From an uncultured Bacteroidales bacterium (GTDB taxonomy: Bacteria > Bacteroidota > Bacteroidia > Bacteroidales > Muribaculaceae), in the NCBI GenBank assembly GCA_902782465.1, contig CACZNH010000021.1:1-40635 (forward strand): DNA of 40,635 nt, written 5' to 3'. Below the pieces are notes generated by a model. That model worked only from the letters and a program-made list of their open reading frames with translations. It was not told the origin of the DNA and did not search any database. The translations under genes were made by a program, and so were the position numbers. How positions within the stretch are numbered: the first letter of the stretch is position 1; each line of letters starts with the position of its first letter. Below are positions 434 through 34,874 of the stretch, piece by piece.

Positions 434-2098
<1,665 letters not shown>

Positions 2099-2100
2099 TG

Positions 2101-2187
2101 AAGTTGTCAGTTGTCAGTTTTCAGCGGCATCCGCAAACTAACAACTGACAACTGAAAACTGAAGACTGACAACTGACAACTAAAAAC
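2101..2187. repeat. Heptamer-word hairpin with GGCATCCGC core (after pyrG)
   Basis: Three GTTGTCA/GTTTTCA words on the left face ACAACTG/AAAACTG words on the right, around GCGG-CAT-CCGC at 2124-2134. The reverse complement of the left arm matches the right arm at 17 of 18 positions. More right-hand words continue to 2187. The same core occurs in hairpins at 13593-13652 and 34795-34874. It may end the pyrG transcript, but there is no U-tract. Confidence 0.85.
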
Positions 2188-2206
2188 CGAATATTATTTA
2201 CAACAA

Positions 2207-2572
2207 ATGAAATCCAGCGATTATAAAGATTTATTAGTTTGGCAAAAAGCAATGGACCTGACTGTTGAGGTCTATTCGATTGTCAAATTATTGCCACAGG
2301 AAGAGACTTATGCTTTGTCTGACCAGATGCGTCGTGCTGCAGTCTCGATTCCTTCCAATATTGCTGAAGGACAAGGTAGGGACTCAAGCAAAGAATTTAT
2401 AAGGTTTTTATCTGTGGCTCGTGGCTCTCTCAGGGAATTGTCTACACAGTTTGAGATATGCGAACGACTTGGTTATATTAATCAATCAAACACCTCAAGA
2501 TCAAGTGTGTTGATTACCGAAGTAGATAAAATGCTCACATCTCTAGCAACTAAATTGATGCAAAAAAACTGA
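2207..2572 (+). CDS. Four-helix-bundle protein, 23S rRNA intervening-sequence (IVP/S23) family
   Basis: The 121-residue protein matches the small four-helix-bundle family first noted as ORFs in 23S rRNA intervening sequences. Family marks are the opening DLLVWQKAMDL, then LSDQMRRAAVSIPSNIAEGQ (residues 38-57) and FLSVARGSLREL. No enzyme activity is established for the family; the related Avd proteins work with reverse transcriptases in diversity-generating retroelements, but no reverse transcriptase or rRNA is nearby. The gene is clearly more AT-rich than pyrG and yidC, which it separates. Heptamer-word arrays lie on both sides, and its TGA stop (2570-2572) lies inside the right-hand array. 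It looks like an inserted cassette. Identity is confident from sequence; the role is unknown. Confidence 0.85.
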   Translation: MKSSDYKDLLVWQKAMDLTVEVYSIVKLLPQEETYALSDQMRRAAVSIPSNIAEGQGRDSSKEFIRFLSVARGSLRELSTQFEICERLGYINQSNTSRSSVLITEVDKMLTSLATKLMQKN

Positions 2573-2633
2573 CAACTGAAAACTGACAACTGAAAACTGA
2601 AAACTGAAAACTGACAACTGACAACTGAAAACT
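2564..2633. repeat. Tandem 7-nt array (aCaactg/aAaactg) between the four-helix-bundle gene and yidC
   Basis: About nine uninterrupted 7-nt units, each spelled ACAACTG or AAAACTG, run from the last codons of the preceding gene to 8 nt before the yidC start. There is no inverted arm here, unlike 2101-2187. Confidence 0.9.
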
Positions 2634-2641
2634 TATAATAT

Positions 2642-4735
2642 ATGGATAAAAACACTTTGATTGCAATGTTGCTGATGGGACTCGTCGTCTTCGGGTTCAT
2701 GTGGCTGCAGCAGCCCAGCGAGGCCGAGATGGCCGAGTATCAGCGGCAACTGGACTCTATCGAAGCGGTGCAGAAGGCACAGCAGCGCACCGACGTCACC
2801 GCCGGTAACGTGGACACCATCTCTGCCGCCGAGGTGACACACCTCAAGAGCGTCCTCGCCAATATGCCCGAGGGTAACGCCACCATCAACAACGAGGGCG
2901 TCATCCTCTCGCTCAAGGACGGTGAACTCAACGGCACTGTCACCGTGGCCGACACCACCGTGACGTGGGACGAGGTGGCAGCTGCCACCAGCAGCAACCC
3001 GGCAGTGCACAACCTGGCAGTGCAGGCCGTGCAGCGTGCGCTGGACGTGTATGCCAAGAACGGCTCGTTTGCCGCATCACTGACGGGAACCGAGCAGTTG
3101 GTGACCCTCGAGAACGACTCCCTGAAGGTCGAACTCAGCACCAAGGGCGGCATCATCGCCCGCGCCACCTTGAAGGGCTACAAGACCTACAAGACGCCGC
3201 AGCTGCTGCTGTTTGACAAGGGCGACAACGACTACAGCTTCACCCTGAGCAACAACACGCAGCGCTTCGAGACCAAGAATTTCTATTTTGAACCGCAGCA
3301 CATCAACGACAGCACCGTGCTGATGAACCTCAACCTGGAGGGCGGCGCACAGTGGGGACTGAAGTACACCCTGGTGCCCGGCAGCTACATGGTGCGCATG
3401 GAGATGGTGCAGAAGTCGATGTCACGCCTCATCCCGTTGAACATCAACCTGGTGGACCTGGACTGGCACCAGAAGATTTCGCGCCACGAGTTCGGCAAGC
3501 AGTTTGAGGAGCGCAACAGCGGCGTCTATTACAAGTATGCCGGCAAGGGTGGCGACGTGAAGCACATGAGCGAGAACGGTAGCGACGAGGACGAGGTGAA
3601 GGAACAGCTCAAGTGGGTCAGCGCCAAGAACCAGTTCTTCTCGACCGTGCTCATCGCCGACAGCGTCTTCACCACCGCCAACATGACGAGCAACACGACC
3701 AACGACACGCCCGACTATGAGAAGTACCTCAAGGACGTGAACATCCACACGATGATTCCCTACTCGAGCGACAAGGCCGTGCCCGCTTCGTTCTACTTCT
3801 ATCTGGGTCCCAACCGCTACCACATGCTGTCGAGCTACGACAAGTATTCTCCCAAGGAGGACCTGAAGCTCACCCACCTGATCCCGCTGGGATGGAAGTT
3901 CTTCCGCTGGATTAACACGGGCGTCATCATCCCCGTGTTCAACTGGCTGGGCAAGTTCATGAGCAACTACGGTCTCATCATCCTGGTGCTCACCATCCTC
4001 ATCAAGCTCATCCTGTCGCCGCTGACCTTCAAGACCTACATCTCGCAGGCCAAGATGCGCATCCTGGCGCCCGATATCGCCAAAATCAACGAGCAGTATC
4101 CCAACCAGGAAGATGCCATGAAGAAGCAACAGAAGACCATGGAGCTGTACCGCCTGGCGGGTGCCAACCCCATGGGTGGCTGTCTGCCCATGCTGCTGCA
4201 GATGCCCATCCTGATTGCGATGTTCACCTTCTTCCCCTCGTGCATTGAGTTGAGAGGTCAGTCCTTCCTGTGGGCCAATGACCTGAGTGCTCCCGACAAG
4301 ATTTTGGAGTGGAGTGGCAACATTCCCATCCTCTCGAGTCTGTTCGGTAACCACTTGAGCCTCTTCTGCCTGCTGATGACGGTAACCAACATCATCTTCA
4401 CCTGGCTGACCACCAAGTCGCAGCCCTCATCCAACTCGATGCCGGGCATGAAGTGGATGATGTACCTCATGCCGCTGATGTTCCTGTTCTTCTTCAACAA
4501 CTATGCAGCAGGCTTGAGCTACTACTACTTCCTCTTCACGCTGATTACCATCCTGCAGACCTATCTGTGCCGTTTCTTCGTCAGCGAGGACAAGGTGCGC
4601 GCCACCATCGCCGAGAATTCCAAGAAGCCCAAGAAGAAATCCAAGTGGATGGAACGCCTCGAGGAGGCCCAGAAACAGCAGCAGGCCATGCAACGCCAGC
4701 AAGCCAAGGCCAACAACGCCAAGCGCCGCCGCTGA
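2642..4735 (+). CDS. yidC: Membrane protein insertase YidC
   Basis: Inserts and folds inner-membrane proteins, alone or with SecYEG. The 697-residue product has the Gram-negative layout: an N-terminal membrane anchor (residues 5-22), a large periplasmic beta domain, then the conserved Oxa1-type domain from about residue 440. That domain begins with a hydrophobic segment (GLIILVLTILIKLILSPL), followed by the cytoplasmic loop with QAKMRILAPDIAKINEQYP, MGGCLPMLLQMPILIAMF and further membrane segments. The C-terminus is a basic tail ending AKRRR, as in proteins that touch the ribosome. It is slightly longer than the usual Bacteroidales YidC, mainly in the low-complexity N-terminal linker (residues 30-110). 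A long hairpin follows the stop. Confidence 0.96.
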   Translation: MDKNTLIAMLLMGLVVFGFMWLQQPSEAEMAEYQRQLDSIEAVQKAQQRTDVTAGNVDTISAAEVTHLKSVLANMPEGNATINNEGVILSLKDGELNGTVTVADTTVTWDEVAAATSSNPAVHNLAVQAVQRALDVYAKNGSFAASLTGTEQLVTLENDSLKVELSTKGGIIARATLKGYKTYKTPQLLLFDKGDNDYSFTLSNNTQRFETKNFYFEPQHINDSTVLMNLNLEGGAQWGLKYTLVPGSYMVRMEMVQKSMSRLIPLNINLVDLDWHQKISRHEFGKQFEERNSGVYYKYAGKGGDVKHMSENGSDEDEVKEQLKWVSAKNQFFSTVLIADSVFTTANMTSNTTNDTPDYEKYLKDVNIHTMIPYSSDKAVPASFYFYLGPNRYHMLSSYDKYSPKEDLKLTHLIPLGWKFFRWINTGVIIPVFNWLGKFMSNYGLIILVLTILIKLILSPLTFKTYISQAKMRILAPDIAKINEQYPNQEDAMKKQQKTMELYRLAGANPMGGCLPMLLQMPILIAMFTFFPSCIELRGQSFLWANDLSAPDKILEWSGNIPILSSLFGNHLSLFCLLMTVTNIIFTWLTTKSQPSSNSMPGMKWMMYLMPLMFLFFFNNYAAGLSYYYFLFTLITILQTYLCRFFVSEDKVRATIAENSKKPKKKSKWMERLEEAQKQQQAMQRQQAKANNAKRRR

Positions 4736-4746
4736 GTTCCCCCTAT

Positions 4747-4861
4747 CAGACAACAATGACAACTATGTTAGACAACAAGAACAATCATCGATTAGTATCT
4801 GTATAGCATCTATAGTTTCTATAGCATCTATAATTGTCTATCATGTTGTCACTGTTGTCTG
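4747..4861. repeat. Long imperfect hairpin after yidC with CTATAGCATC words
   Basis: The outer arms, beginning CAGACAACAATGACAAC at 4747 and ending GTTGTCACTGTTGTCTG at 4861, are near reverse complements over 28-29 nt. Between them are repeated TATAGCATCTATAG words at about 4802-4832. The same inner word fills the speA-truA gap at 15853-15884. It probably forms a structured 3' end for yidC, without a clear U-tract. Confidence 0.8.
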
Positions 4862-13589: not shown

Positions 13590-13592
13590 AAC

Positions 13593-13652
13593 GTTAGGCA
13601 TTAGGCGTTAGGCGGATGCCACCTAAAACCTAAAGCCTAAAACCTAAAACCT
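13593..13652. repeat. Heptamer-word hairpin with GCGGATGCC core (after gldE)
   Basis: GTTAGGC/ATTAGGC words on the left face CCTAAAA/CCTAAAG words on the right. The centre GCGGATGCC (13612-13620) is the exact reverse complement of the GGCATCCGC core at 2101-2187 and 34795-34874, although the words in the arms are spelled differently. Confidence 0.8.
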
Positions 13653-15852: not shown

Positions 15853-15884
15853 GCTATAGCATCTATAGCGTCTATAGCATCTAT
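15853..15884. repeat. CTATAGCATC repeat between speA and truA
   Basis: Three copies of CTATAGC(A/G)TC almost fill the 39-nt gap and include the speA TAG stop (15883-15881). The same word occurs twice inside the hairpin after yidC at about 4802-4832. Confidence 0.8.
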
Positions 15885-27852: not shown

Positions 27853-27957
27853 AGTTGTAAGTTGTAAGTTTTTAGTTTTAAGTACGATTACTCTCGCCTA
27901 TGGGAGTCGAGGCAAAGGTATTATTACTTAAAACTTACAACTAAAAACTTAAAACTA
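27853..27957. repeat. Second hairpin family, copy 1 (TAAGTACGATTAC core)
   Basis: Outer AAGTTGTAAGTTTTTAG words on the left face CTTACAACTAAAAACTT words on the right. Inside them a core of about 50 nt begins TAAGTACGATTACTC and ends GGTATTATTACTTA, itself an imperfect inverted repeat. Copies are at 28950-29058 and, in the opposite orientation, 34031-34137. Confidence 0.85.
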
Positions 27958-27965
27958 TATAGAGT

Positions 27966-28964
27966 ATGAAAATCGGGAACATAGATTTGGGCGAGCGCCC
28001 TGTGATGCTGGCACCCATGGAGGATGTCACCGACCAGTCGTTCAGGCTCATCTGCCGTGAACAGGGCGCCGATATGGTCTATACCGAGTTTGTCAGCGCC
28101 GACGCGCTGATACGCAGCATTGAACGCTCGTTCCAGAAGATGGCCATTGCCCCGGGCGAACGACCTGCTGCCATCCAAATCTATGGCCGCGACGTGGACT
28201 CCATGGTTGAAGCGGCACGCATCGCTGCGACGGCCAAGCCCGATTTCATTGACATCAACTGGGGCTGCCCAGTCAAGAAAATCGCGGGCAAGGGCTCGGG
28301 AGCGGGAATGCTGCGCAATATCCCGCTGATGCTCGAAATCACCCGTGCCGTGGTCAATGCCGTGGATCTGCCCGTGACGGTGAAAACGCGCCTGGGATGG
28401 GACCACAACAGCAAAATCATCGTTGAACTCGCCGAGCAGTTGCAGGACTGCGGTATCGCTGCCCTCACCATCCACGGTCGCACACGTTCCCAGATTTACA
28501 CCGGCGAGGCCGACTGGACTCTCATCGGTGAGGTGAAAAACAACCCGCACATGAAGATTCCCATCATCGGCAACGGTGACGTGACCACGCCACAGCGCCT
28601 CAAGGAGTGCTTTGACCGCTACGGTGTCGATGGTGTGATGGTGGGCAGGGCCAGTATCGGTGCCCCGTGGATTTTCCGCGAGATGAAGCAATACCTGATC
28701 ACAGGCGAGGTGCCTGTTATCAGCGATGCCGAGAAGATGGCGCTTGTGCGGCGGCAGATTGCCGAGAGCATCGACCGCATCGACGAGTACCGCGGCATCC
28801 TGCACATCCGTCGCCACCTGGCCGCCACCCCGCTGTTCAAGGGGATACGCAACTTCCGTCCCACGCGCATCGCTATGCTGCGAGCCGACACGCGTGCCGA
28901 ACTTGAAGCCATCCTCGACCATATCGAGAAAGATATTTTACCACACATAGGTTGTGAGTTTTAA
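27966..28964 (+). CDS. dusB: tRNA-dihydrouridine synthase
   Basis: FMN enzyme that reduces uridines in the tRNA D-loop. The 332-residue protein has the barrel start LAPMEDVTDQSFR, the catalytic Cys101 in DINWGCPVKKI, then GSGAGMLRN, TVKTRLGWD, LTIHGRTRSQ and the phosphate-binding IIGNGDV with GVMVGRASIGAPW. The small helical domain follows. DusB is the best subgroup guess by overall length and context, but the subgroup cannot be settled by eye. The C-terminal residues CEF and the stop lie in the next repeat. Confidence 0.93.
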   Translation: MKIGNIDLGERPVMLAPMEDVTDQSFRLICREQGADMVYTEFVSADALIRSIERSFQKMAIAPGERPAAIQIYGRDVDSMVEAARIAATAKPDFIDINWGCPVKKIAGKGSGAGMLRNIPLMLEITRAVVNAVDLPVTVKTRLGWDHNSKIIVELAEQLQDCGIAALTIHGRTRSQIYTGEADWTLIGEVKNNPHMKIPIIGNGDVTTPQRLKECFDRYGVDGVMVGRASIGAPWIFREMKQYLITGEVPVISDAEKMALVRRQIAESIDRIDEYRGILHIRRHLAATPLFKGIRNFRPTRIAMLRADTRAELEAILDHIEKDILPHIGCEF

Positions 28965-29058
28965 GTTTTAAGTACGATTACTATCGCCTATAGAATGTTG
29001 AGGCAAAGGTTTTATTACTAAAAACTAAGGACTAAGGACAAAAAACTAAGGACTAAGA
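28950..29058. repeat. Second hairpin family, copy 2, with heptamer tail
   Basis: Begins inside the dus gene (GGTTGTGAGTTTTAA, its last codons and stop), carries the TAAGTACGATTAC...TTTTATTACTA core, and then changes to AAAAACT/AAGGACT words up to 2 nt before the next ATG. The right arm therefore uses a different spelling from the left. Confidence 0.82.
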
Positions 29059-34030: not shown

Positions 34031-34137
34031 AGTTGTAAGTTGTGAGTTTTTAGTTTTAAGTAATAATACCTTCGCCGCTACATTTTTTAGGCGAAAGTAA
34101 CCGTACTTAAAACTTACAACTAAAAGCTTAAAACTGA
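34031..34137. repeat. Second hairpin family, copy 3, core inverted
   Basis: Outer AGTTGTAAG words are as in 27853-27957, but the core reads TAAGTAATAATACC...AACCGTACTTA, which is the reverse complement orientation of copies 1 and 2. It runs from the rpoN stop to 8 nt before the next ATG. Confidence 0.85.
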
Positions 34138-34794: not shown

Positions 34795-34874
34795 AGTTTT
34801 CAGTTGTCAGTCGTCAGTTGTCAGCGGCATCCGCATTCAACTGAAAACTGAAAACTGAAAACTGAAAACTGAAG
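34795..34874. repeat. Heptamer-word hairpin with GGCATCCGC core (before ispG)
   Basis: GTTTTCAGTTGTCAG words face AACTGAAAACTGAAAACTG words around CGGCATCCGC (34825-34834). The same core and words as at 2101-2187, about 32 kb away; the array ends 3 nt before the ispG ATG. Confidence 0.85.

What the first reader, a model, noticed from the sequence alone, without database searches (positions are those of the whole stretch)
2101..2633. AT-rich four-helix-bundle gene bracketed by heptamer arrays splits pyrG and yidC
The S23/IVP-type gene differs in composition from both neighbours, is enclosed by the two arrays with the same spelling, and has its stop codon inside the right array. pyrG and yidC are often adjacent in Bacteroidales. 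This looks like a cassette: a repeat element carrying a protein that may act on the repeats. IVP proteins have no known function, so an association with repeat arrays would be a real lead.
Basis: partly seen in the sequence, partly recalled or inferred. Interest (0 to 1): 0.75.

Follow-up and report, generated by a model that had tools for sequence, protein, structure and literature searches.

The report
Heptamer-armed mobile element carrying pentamer-ring protein
A small gene of unknown function sits between two mirror-image runs of a 7-letter DNA repeat, and its relatives across many bacterial phyla usually do too, which suggests that the protein and the repeats form one mobile unit and could explain why 7-letter repeats are so common in bacterial genomes.

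Summary
The window gene (2207-2572) is a PF05635 IVP gene between heptamer arrays, absent from this site in most relatives examined. It is typical of the family. Of 87 same-genus IVP genes, 68 have 6-8-mer arrays on both sides (control genes 12 of 316), and 69 have matching inverted arms (controls 5 of 316). Among 94 loci from many phyla 72 have inverted arms, mostly of period 7. Spelling differs between elements but tracks the protein (Mantel r 0.54), also at different sites. Arms change in concert, a cassette is found inverted in place, sites are reused, and IVP is under purifying selection (dN/dS 0.04-0.16). Arms without the gene are scattered genome-wide, with partial bias to genomes carrying the cognate IVP. 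A PD-(D/E)XK family (GxxExxY) shares the pyrG-yidC site and elsewhere has mostly 9-mer arms. Best explanation: a REP/RAYT-like repeat system with a non-transposase protein, of which the 23S rRNA intervening sequence is probably one instance. Binding and the chemistry of movement are inferred. In the papers seen, only a Coxiella paper notes heptamers beside one such gene; another calls heptamer abundance unexplained.

The parts
2102..2124 (-). outer left arm: AGTTGTC heptamer array (inverted copy of the right array)
   Evidence: score 23 against reverse complement of 2565-2633
2125..2134 (.). hairpin core CGGCATCCGC, shared with the array at 34795-34873; a similar motif recurs between arms in relatives
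2136..2190 (+). inner left array, AACTGAC spelling, pairs with 2102-2124
2207..2572 (+). IVP / four-helix-bundle protein, 121 aa, PF05635; stop codon lies in the right array
2565..2633 (+). right arm: AAAACTG / GACAACTG heptamer array, 9.9 copies
476..2098 (+). pyrG (CTP synthase), upstream co-directional host gene (ATG at 476 read by eye; ORF list gives TTG 464)
2642..4735 (+). yidC, downstream host gene
34795..34873 (.). solo element without ORF: same arm spelling and same CGGCATCCGC core as the IVP locus
27853..27956 (.). solo element: heptamer arms plus core sequence shared with the ends of IVP elements of G020/G017 (possible internal-deletion derivative)
28957..29057 (.). solo element, same core as 27853
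34031..34135 (.). solo element, same core as 27853
13592..13652 (.). solo inverted arrays GTTAGGC / ACCTAAA with GGATGCC core

Best explanation
The window gene and its flanking arrays are one copy of a bacterial mobile repeat element. The full element is an IVP gene lying between two inverted arms, each most often 28-34 bp (4-5 copies) of a heptamer array; single or paired arms without the gene are its dispersed derivatives. The protein, a pentameric four-helix-bundle ring in its solved relatives, is proposed to recognise its own heptamer spelling and to promote strand exchange or copying between arms, using host replication or recombination enzymes, since no catalytic domain was found in it. 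That would keep left and right arms identical, invert the cassette, spread arms (and now and then the whole cassette) into gene-end and intergenic sites, and pull dispersed arms towards the spelling of the resident IVP. The cassette seems to depend on read-through from the upstream gene. Shown here: anatomy, generality, protein-spelling correlation, concerted arms, an inversion, site variability, dispersed arms of the same spelling, purifying selection. Inferred: binding, action in trans, read-through, chemistry.
For: Association: 68 of 87 both-sided against 12 of 316 control ORFs; inverted arms 69 of 87 in the genus, 72 of 94 wide, controls 5 of 316. Period 7: 132 of 153 array sides in the genus, 103 of 122 wide. 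Protein-spelling Mantel r 0.544 (64 proteins), 0 of 2000 permutations; wide r 0.169 (66 proteins), 0 of 2000. Different-site pairs of at least 80% identity share spelling (0.90, n=9) against 0.03 below 30% (n=1224). Cassette inverted in place, with breakpoints at the arms, between G035 and G036; 27 of 117 same-site pairs lie in opposite orientation. Arms spelled differently per species but matched within each. Site without IVP in G018, G023, G024. Dispersed arms: the 33-bp left arm of L076, odd unit included, exact in 3 of 20 G036 arrays and within 3 mismatches in 13 of 20 there and 13 of 20 in G035 (arrays chosen by similarity). AATGCAC arrays in 10 of 37 genomes, including all 6 carriers; AGATAAG 52 hits in G007, the one genome whose fetched IVP has AGATAAG arms, next 10. 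dN/dS 0.04-0.16 in 12 of 13 pairs. Upstream ORF co-directional 77 of 85.
Against: No catalytic or transposase domain found: Pfam shows IVP and sub-threshold bAvd only. No binding data. No target-site duplication read: nearly all gaps looked at hold arrays or hairpins in other species; one gap without an array (L326 site in G032) is too diverged to read. Spelling and resident IVP do not always agree: AATGCAC arrays in four genomes without such an IVP (G033 48, G010 23, G005 16, G029 15) and only 1 in carrier G015; AGTTAGG arrays in genomes where I fetched no such IVP (G016 127, G007 106) and only 5 in carrier G017; AGTTAAT only 9 in G016, whose IVP has such arms, but 25 in G007. In the genus 6 of 87 have no array by score and 13 only one; wide, 18 of 94 none and 28 one. 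14 of 94 show direct similarity. At two of the six sites with opposite orientations the proteins share only 21-51% identity, so these are different elements, not inversions; others could be independent insertions. Genomes are drafts and related, so counts are not independent.
Confidence: 0.65

Rival explanations
1. RNA-level element, as in the 23S rRNA intervening sequence: the arms pair in the transcript, RNase III cuts the stem, and the IVP message is released from host mRNA; the arms are kept by selection for RNA pairing.
For: Upstream ORF co-directional in 77 of 85 (genus) and 73 of 87 (wide); in the genus tandem sites 50 co-directional, 5 antisense. Arms enclose the ORF in the folded RNA. 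The Coxiella IVS is cut by RNase III in vitro (PMC4990558, passages).
Against: Arm mismatches show no excess of G.U over A.C pairs on the transcribed strand: 230 against 266 in 175 arm pairs. An odd unit is mirrored in both arms and found in single arms elsewhere. Could still be a secondary property.
Confidence: 0.2
2. IVP is a repeat-binding regulator and the dispersed arms are its operators or RNA targets; spelling co-evolves as regulator and sites do.
For: Arms sit in intergenic gaps near stop and start codons; protein and spelling correlate. MacGregor 2015 proposed regulatory sites for TAACTGA repeats (PMC4679880, abstract, passages and its Bacteroidetes section).
Against: The same gap holds differently spelled arrays in related species; dozens of sites would have to change in step. 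Inversion and occupation of one site by different IVP or GxxExxY genes are not expected of a regulator.
Confidence: 0.12
3. Passive hitch-hiking: heptamer arrays arise by slippage or an unrelated process in intergenic gaps, and IVP genes merely accumulate there.
For: Arrays are common in these genomes: 91 of 316 control ORFs have one on at least one side.
Against: Inverted matching arms 69 of 87 against 5 of 316; protein-spelling correlation and shared spelling at different sites; the period is 7 with IVP but 9 with GxxExxY.
Confidence: 0.03

Closest known systems
REP sequences with RAYT transposases (REPIN/RAYT)
   Same: Single gene between two inverted copies of a short repeat; the same repeat scattered singly and in inverted doublets (RAYT facts from PMC2817692, abstract and passages).
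   Different: RAYT is an IS200/IS605-related tyrosine transposase and its REPs are palindromes with a GT(A/G)G head; here the protein is a four-helix bundle without a transposase domain and the repeat is a tandem heptamer array.
23S rRNA intervening sequences (IVS) with S23p/IVP ORF
   Same: Same protein family in the loop of terminal inverted repeats; the Coxiella IVS has a 28-bp stem and tandem heptamers (GACAGAT) of variable number before the ORF (PMC4990558, passages).
   Different: Here outside rRNA, between protein genes, in many sites and spellings, with genome-wide solo arms. The passages seen do not generalise the heptamers beyond Coxiella.
Heptanucleotide repeats of cyanobacteria, Xanthomonas, Beggiatoaceae
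   Same: Intergenic heptamer arrays, up to hundreds per genome, some inverted; the Dyella IVP locus L266 has GGGAATN arms like the Xanthomonas GGGAATC repeats, and Nostoc, Anabaena and Picosynechococcus plasmid IVP genes lie between heptamer or octamer arrays.
   Different: In the passages seen no IVP partner is named; one paper states that the repeats were generally not found with mobile elements (PMC4692102). That Xanthomonas IVP genes have such arms was not tested.
Bordetella-type Avd of diversity-generating retroelements
   Same: Related family by sequence (bAvd 27.8 bits, below the 40-bit cut-off; NCBIfam Avd 32 bits, cutoff 80).
   Different: Below both cut-offs; presence of a reverse transcriptase or template repeat was not searched for.
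MITEs
   Same: Short ORF-less elements sharing ends with a gene-bearing element (three window solos).
   Different: No transposase and no target-site duplication identified.

Membership tests
PF05635 / TIGR02436 four-helix-bundle IVP | profile match above curated cutoff | tested here: met
   137.6 bits (cutoff 33.8), 133.8 bits (cutoff 24):
PF05635 / TIGR02436 four-helix-bundle IVP | homopentameric ring | not testable with these tools
   relatives 2gsc and 2rld have five chains per entry; X. campestris homopentamer stated in PMC4990558
23S rRNA intervening sequence | IVP ORF in the loop of terminal inverted repeats | tested here: met
23S rRNA intervening sequence | located inside a 23S rRNA gene | tested here: not met
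   window copy lies between pyrG and yidC; 20 of the 80 wide genome loci scanned with Rfam hold no rRNA
23S rRNA intervening sequence | excision by RNase III | not testable with these tools
   needs RNA
REP/RAYT | gene between inverted copies of a dispersed repeat | tested here: met
REP/RAYT | IS200/IS605-type tyrosine transposase (Transposase_17) | tested here: not met
   Pfam scan finds only IVP and weak bAvd
REP/RAYT | palindromic REP with GT(A/G)G head | tested here: not met
   arms are tandem heptamers; no separate search for the head
DGR Avd | match to Avd models above cutoff | tested here: not met
   27.8 of 40 and 32 of 80 bits
DGR Avd | adjacent reverse transcriptase and template/variable repeats | not tested
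   neighbours in the window are pyrG and yidC; no search for a reverse transcriptase was made
Known anti-phage defence protein | PADLOC model match | tested here: not met
   0 families at E 0.01

The most novel reading that the evidence does not exclude
IVP rings read DNA (or RNA) one heptamer per subunit, and are the engine of a cross-phylum class of mobile repeat elements that needs no dedicated transposase. This class is the source of most intergenic tandem heptamers in bacteria and of the rRNA intervening sequences. A parallel class uses a PD-(D/E)XK protein (GxxExxY) with 9-mer arms, so the repeat period is set by the protein.
Probability: 0.3. Interest if true: 0.96.

Novelty: categorically new. 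Interest (0 to 1): 0.9.

Why it matters
Two old puzzles meet. IVP/S23 proteins are said to have no known function (PMC4990558, passages). [quoted passage not shown] Pairing the two gives a testable partner for each, a probable origin for rRNA intervening sequences, and a new kind of repeat-protein system with spelling-linked recognition that might be read out as a code. It also warns that IVP and GxxExxY genes between operon genes (for example pyrG-yidC, cas6-cas4) are probably insertions, not operon members.

Tried and rejected
RNA-stem selection: tested by G.U against A.C mismatches, not supported. Solo-arm empty sites for target duplications: of 20 G036 arrays fetched, 10 matched one of the 20 G035 arrays over a long stretch; flanks of four more were sought in five genomes, and in the gaps retrieved for three of them other species mostly hold some array or hairpin; one (L326 site, G032) has none but is too diverged to read a duplication. 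My first same-site analysis counted opposite-orientation pairs at one site as different sites; redone allowing inversion (9 further pairs had inconsistent flank matches and were not used). A search with a broad IVP alignment failed. Rfam on 20 of the 80 wide genome loci found no 23S rRNA, so heptamer arms in rRNA IVS rest on the Coxiella paper alone. PADLOC: no hit. One heptamer per ring subunit: array lengths peak at 28-34 bp (57 of 133), 4-5 units, which does not single out five. Solos 34795 and 13592 do not share the G020/G017 end cores.

Three dN/dS pairs have dS above 1.7 and one was undefined.

Literature: eight searches of an open-access library, listings of at most 20 papers each. Apart from the Coxiella IVS paper, no listed title or abstract and no passage opened links IVP or GxxExxY genes to flanking repeats. 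Some listed papers that mention such proteins were not opened (e.g. PMC5524665, PMC8700078, PMC11637426). Subscription papers and preprints are not covered.

Full report
What is there. Window 2207-2572 encodes a 121-aa IVP protein (PF05635, 137.6 bits) between CTP synthase and YidC. Its GC is 0.39 against 0.61 and 0.57. A heptamer array follows it (2565-2633) and overlaps its stop codon; on the other side is a full hairpin of two heptamer arms around CGGCATCCGC (2102-2190). The outer left arm also matches the right array in inverted sense. The window has seven other places with heptamer arrays and no IVP gene, for instance 27853-27956, 28957-29057, 34031-34135 and 34795-34873.

It is typical, not an exception. 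The genome of the window (G000) has four PF05635 genes. Three have heptamer arrays on both sides in inverted sense, in three spellings: AGTTGTC, GATTAGA, AGTTAGG; the fourth (L003) has other inverted sequences, scoring 14, at the threshold and not above it. I fetched 87 same-genus loci (of 153 counted matches, mostly the best). Arrays of period 6-8 lie on both sides in 68, on one side in 13, on none in 6; shuffles give 0 of 1740 both-sided. For 316 non-IVP ORFs from 400 kb of the same genus plus the window, the numbers are 12 both-sided, 79 one-sided, 225 none (periods 6-9). Left and right flanks carry matching inverted arms in 69 of 87 (score above 14, the 95th percentile of mismatched pairs), and by the same score in 5 of 316 controls. 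Reading low scorers shows that several carry arms with odd or longer units.

It is not confined to this genus. Fourteen IVP loci from plasmids (12 cyanobacterial, plus Gemmatirosa and Azospirillum) and 80 from a scan of one genome per species (record titles name Bacillota, Verrucomicrobiota, Planctomycetota, Acidobacteriota, Nitrospirota, proteobacteria, candidate phyla and others) were picked by protein similarity alone. In 72 of 94 the arms are inverted copies above the 95th percentile of mismatched pairs; direct similarity passes in 14; arrays are both-sided in 48, one-sided in 28, absent in 18. Period 7 accounts for 103 of 122 array sides, 8 for 16. The lag spectrum has one series of peaks, at 7, 14 and 21.

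Protein and spelling go together. Protein distance correlates with array 5-mer distance (r 0.544, 64 dereplicated proteins, 0 of 2000 permutations; r 0.421 with 33 proteins at 70% dereplication, 0 of 2000; wide r 0.169, 66 proteins, 0 of 2000). Pairs at different genomic sites with at least 80% protein identity share spelling (mean 0.90, n=9), against 0.415 at 70-80% (n=33) and 0.03 below 30% (n=1224). The nine pairs involve few protein groups and are not independent, and 'different site' means that flanks of about 1 kb did not match.

The element behaves like a unit that moves and turns. The 87 genes lie at 46 sites; 27 of 117 same-site pairs are in opposite orientation, at six sites. At two of the six the proteins are only 21-51% identical, so different elements, not inversions. 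In the clearest case (L076 in G035, L075 in G036) the left flank and the cassette are 94% identical, the right flank 86%, and the cassette is reversed, with breakpoints in the arms. At that site G018, G023 and G024 lack the gene, and G007, G032 and G031 have it with arms of other spellings, yet left and right arms agree within each. Between pyrG and yidC, 30 genomes show IVP in 4, a PF13366 (GxxExxY-type) gene in 10 by profile (G034 decayed, G002 cut by the contig end) and neither in 16, down to a 22-bp gap in G018. IVP coding sequence is constrained: dN/dS 0.04-0.16 in 12 of 13 pairs, one undefined, three with near-saturated dS. The upstream ORF runs the same way in 77 of 85 (genus) and 73 of 87 (wide); in the genus tandem sites are 50 co-directional and 5 antisense (ORFs called by a simple script). 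This fits dependence on read-through.

Scattered arms. In G035/G036 many intergenic arrays resemble the IVP arms of L075/L076. Among 20 fetched from each, the 33-bp left arm of L076, odd heptamer included, is exact in 3 G036 arrays and within 3 mismatches in 13 of 20 in each genome. AATGCAC triplets are found in 10 of 37 genomes: all 6 whose fetched IVP has such arms and 4 of 31 others (Fisher by hand about 9e-5, about 0.008 within the 19 genomes of that pyrG subclade). IVP arms themselves count in these totals; G015 has one hit only, and in G014 (20) they may be most. AGATAAG triplets: 52 in G007, the only genome whose fetched IVP has such arms, 10 in G032, at most 2 elsewhere. AGTTAAT: most in G035 and G036 (35, 32), but also 25 in G007, 17 in G033, and only 9 in G016, whose IVP has such arms. 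AGTTAGG arrays are numerous in carriers G000, G031, G032 and G035 (120, 140, 134, 76) but few in carrier G017 (5), and also numerous where I fetched no matching IVP. So arms may outlive or precede the gene. Three window solos share core sequence with IVP elements of G020/G017 (score sums 24-28, null maxima 21-23), two do not.

A second protein class. PF13366 genes use the same pyrG-yidC gap, there with 8-mer arms or other inverted ends. In the 30 loci given, 23 of 32 rows score above 14.05 for inverted arms, the 99th percentile of mismatched pairs. Their arrays have period 9 in 19 of 26 sides and never 7. So the period seems to go with the protein.

How it may work. The solved relatives 2gsc and 2rld have five chains per entry and the X. 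campestris protein is described as a toroidal homopentamer (PMC4990558, passages). I propose that the ring recognises heptamers and helps strands exchange between arms with host enzymes. This would give inversion, arm homogenisation and array-to-array spread. Recognition, trans-action and chemistry are inferred. The mismatch test (G.U 230, A.C 266 in 175 arm pairs) gives no sign of selection for an RNA stem, though RNase III cutting of transcripts remains possible.

Against known systems. The architecture is that of RAYT genes between inverted REPs (PMC2817692, abstract and passages), but the protein has no transposase domain and the repeat is not a REP palindrome. It is also that of the 23S rRNA IVS: the Coxiella IVS has a 28-bp terminal stem and tandem GACAGAT heptamers before the S23p start. 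I take the rRNA IVS to be probable members of this class; I had no other rRNA case to test. Heptamers are reported as the most abundant intergenic tandem repeats in a wide range of prokaryotes without a clue to function (PMC6344855, passage); the Xanthomonas GGGAATC repeats (PMC4692102, passages) resemble the GGGAATN arms of the Dyella IVP (L266). Apart from the Coxiella case, the eight literature searches showed no such association (listings and passages only). I call it categorically new because it meets neither the RAYT protein criterion nor the rRNA-location criterion of IVS; a reader who widens either class would call it a new variant.

Limits. Genomes are mostly drafts of different species and share ancestry; threshold choices matter for weak arrays; no binding, expression or transposition was measured.

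Noticed in passing
L114-L143 (pyrG-yidC gaps): PD-(D/E)XK (PF13366, GxxExxY-type) genes occupy the same gap as IVP, with 8-mer CTAAGNCG arms or GGCC..GAGAAATTAAAC ends; two protein types share one insertion hot spot.
   Followed up: partly
L144-L173: GxxExxY-type genes elsewhere often lie between inverted 9-mer arrays such as CGGATTAAA/TTTAATCCG or CACAGAGAC/GTCTCTGTG.
   Followed up: partly
L007, L011, L012, L013, L223, L262: IVP elements recur in what looks by eye like the sdhA-sdhB junction in different families of Bacteroidota (gene names guessed from end sequences, not searched).
   Followed up: no
L175, L176, L181: Cyanobacterial IVP elements inside CRISPR operons (cas6-IVP-cas4; cas10-IVP-cmr3), per the record annotation.
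   Followed up: no
L213, L252: Two purple sulfur bacteria carry IVP elements just upstream of closely similar gene starts; gene not identified.
   Followed up: no
window 2125-2134, 13592-13652, 34795-34873; L148, L153, L324, L344: The motif GGCATCCGC / GCGGATGCC recurs as linker or core in IVP, GxxExxY and solo elements of this genus.
   Followed up: no
L324 site in L364-L379: One intergenic gap holds heptamer arrays in six species in several spellings; in G024 the odd unit AGAGAAC sits where G036 has AGAGAAA within the array, as if units had changed in step.
   Followed up: partly
window 4749-4850, 15854-15884: Other short repeats: GACAACAAT and TCTATAG-type 9-mer runs; after yidC they look, by eye, like inverted pairs; possibly further element types.
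   Followed up: no
L004 (own genome): The fourth IVP copy has a premature stop (1 TAA in the profile match), a decaying copy with AGTTAGG arms, whose spelling is abundant in the genome (120 pattern hits).
   Followed up: partly
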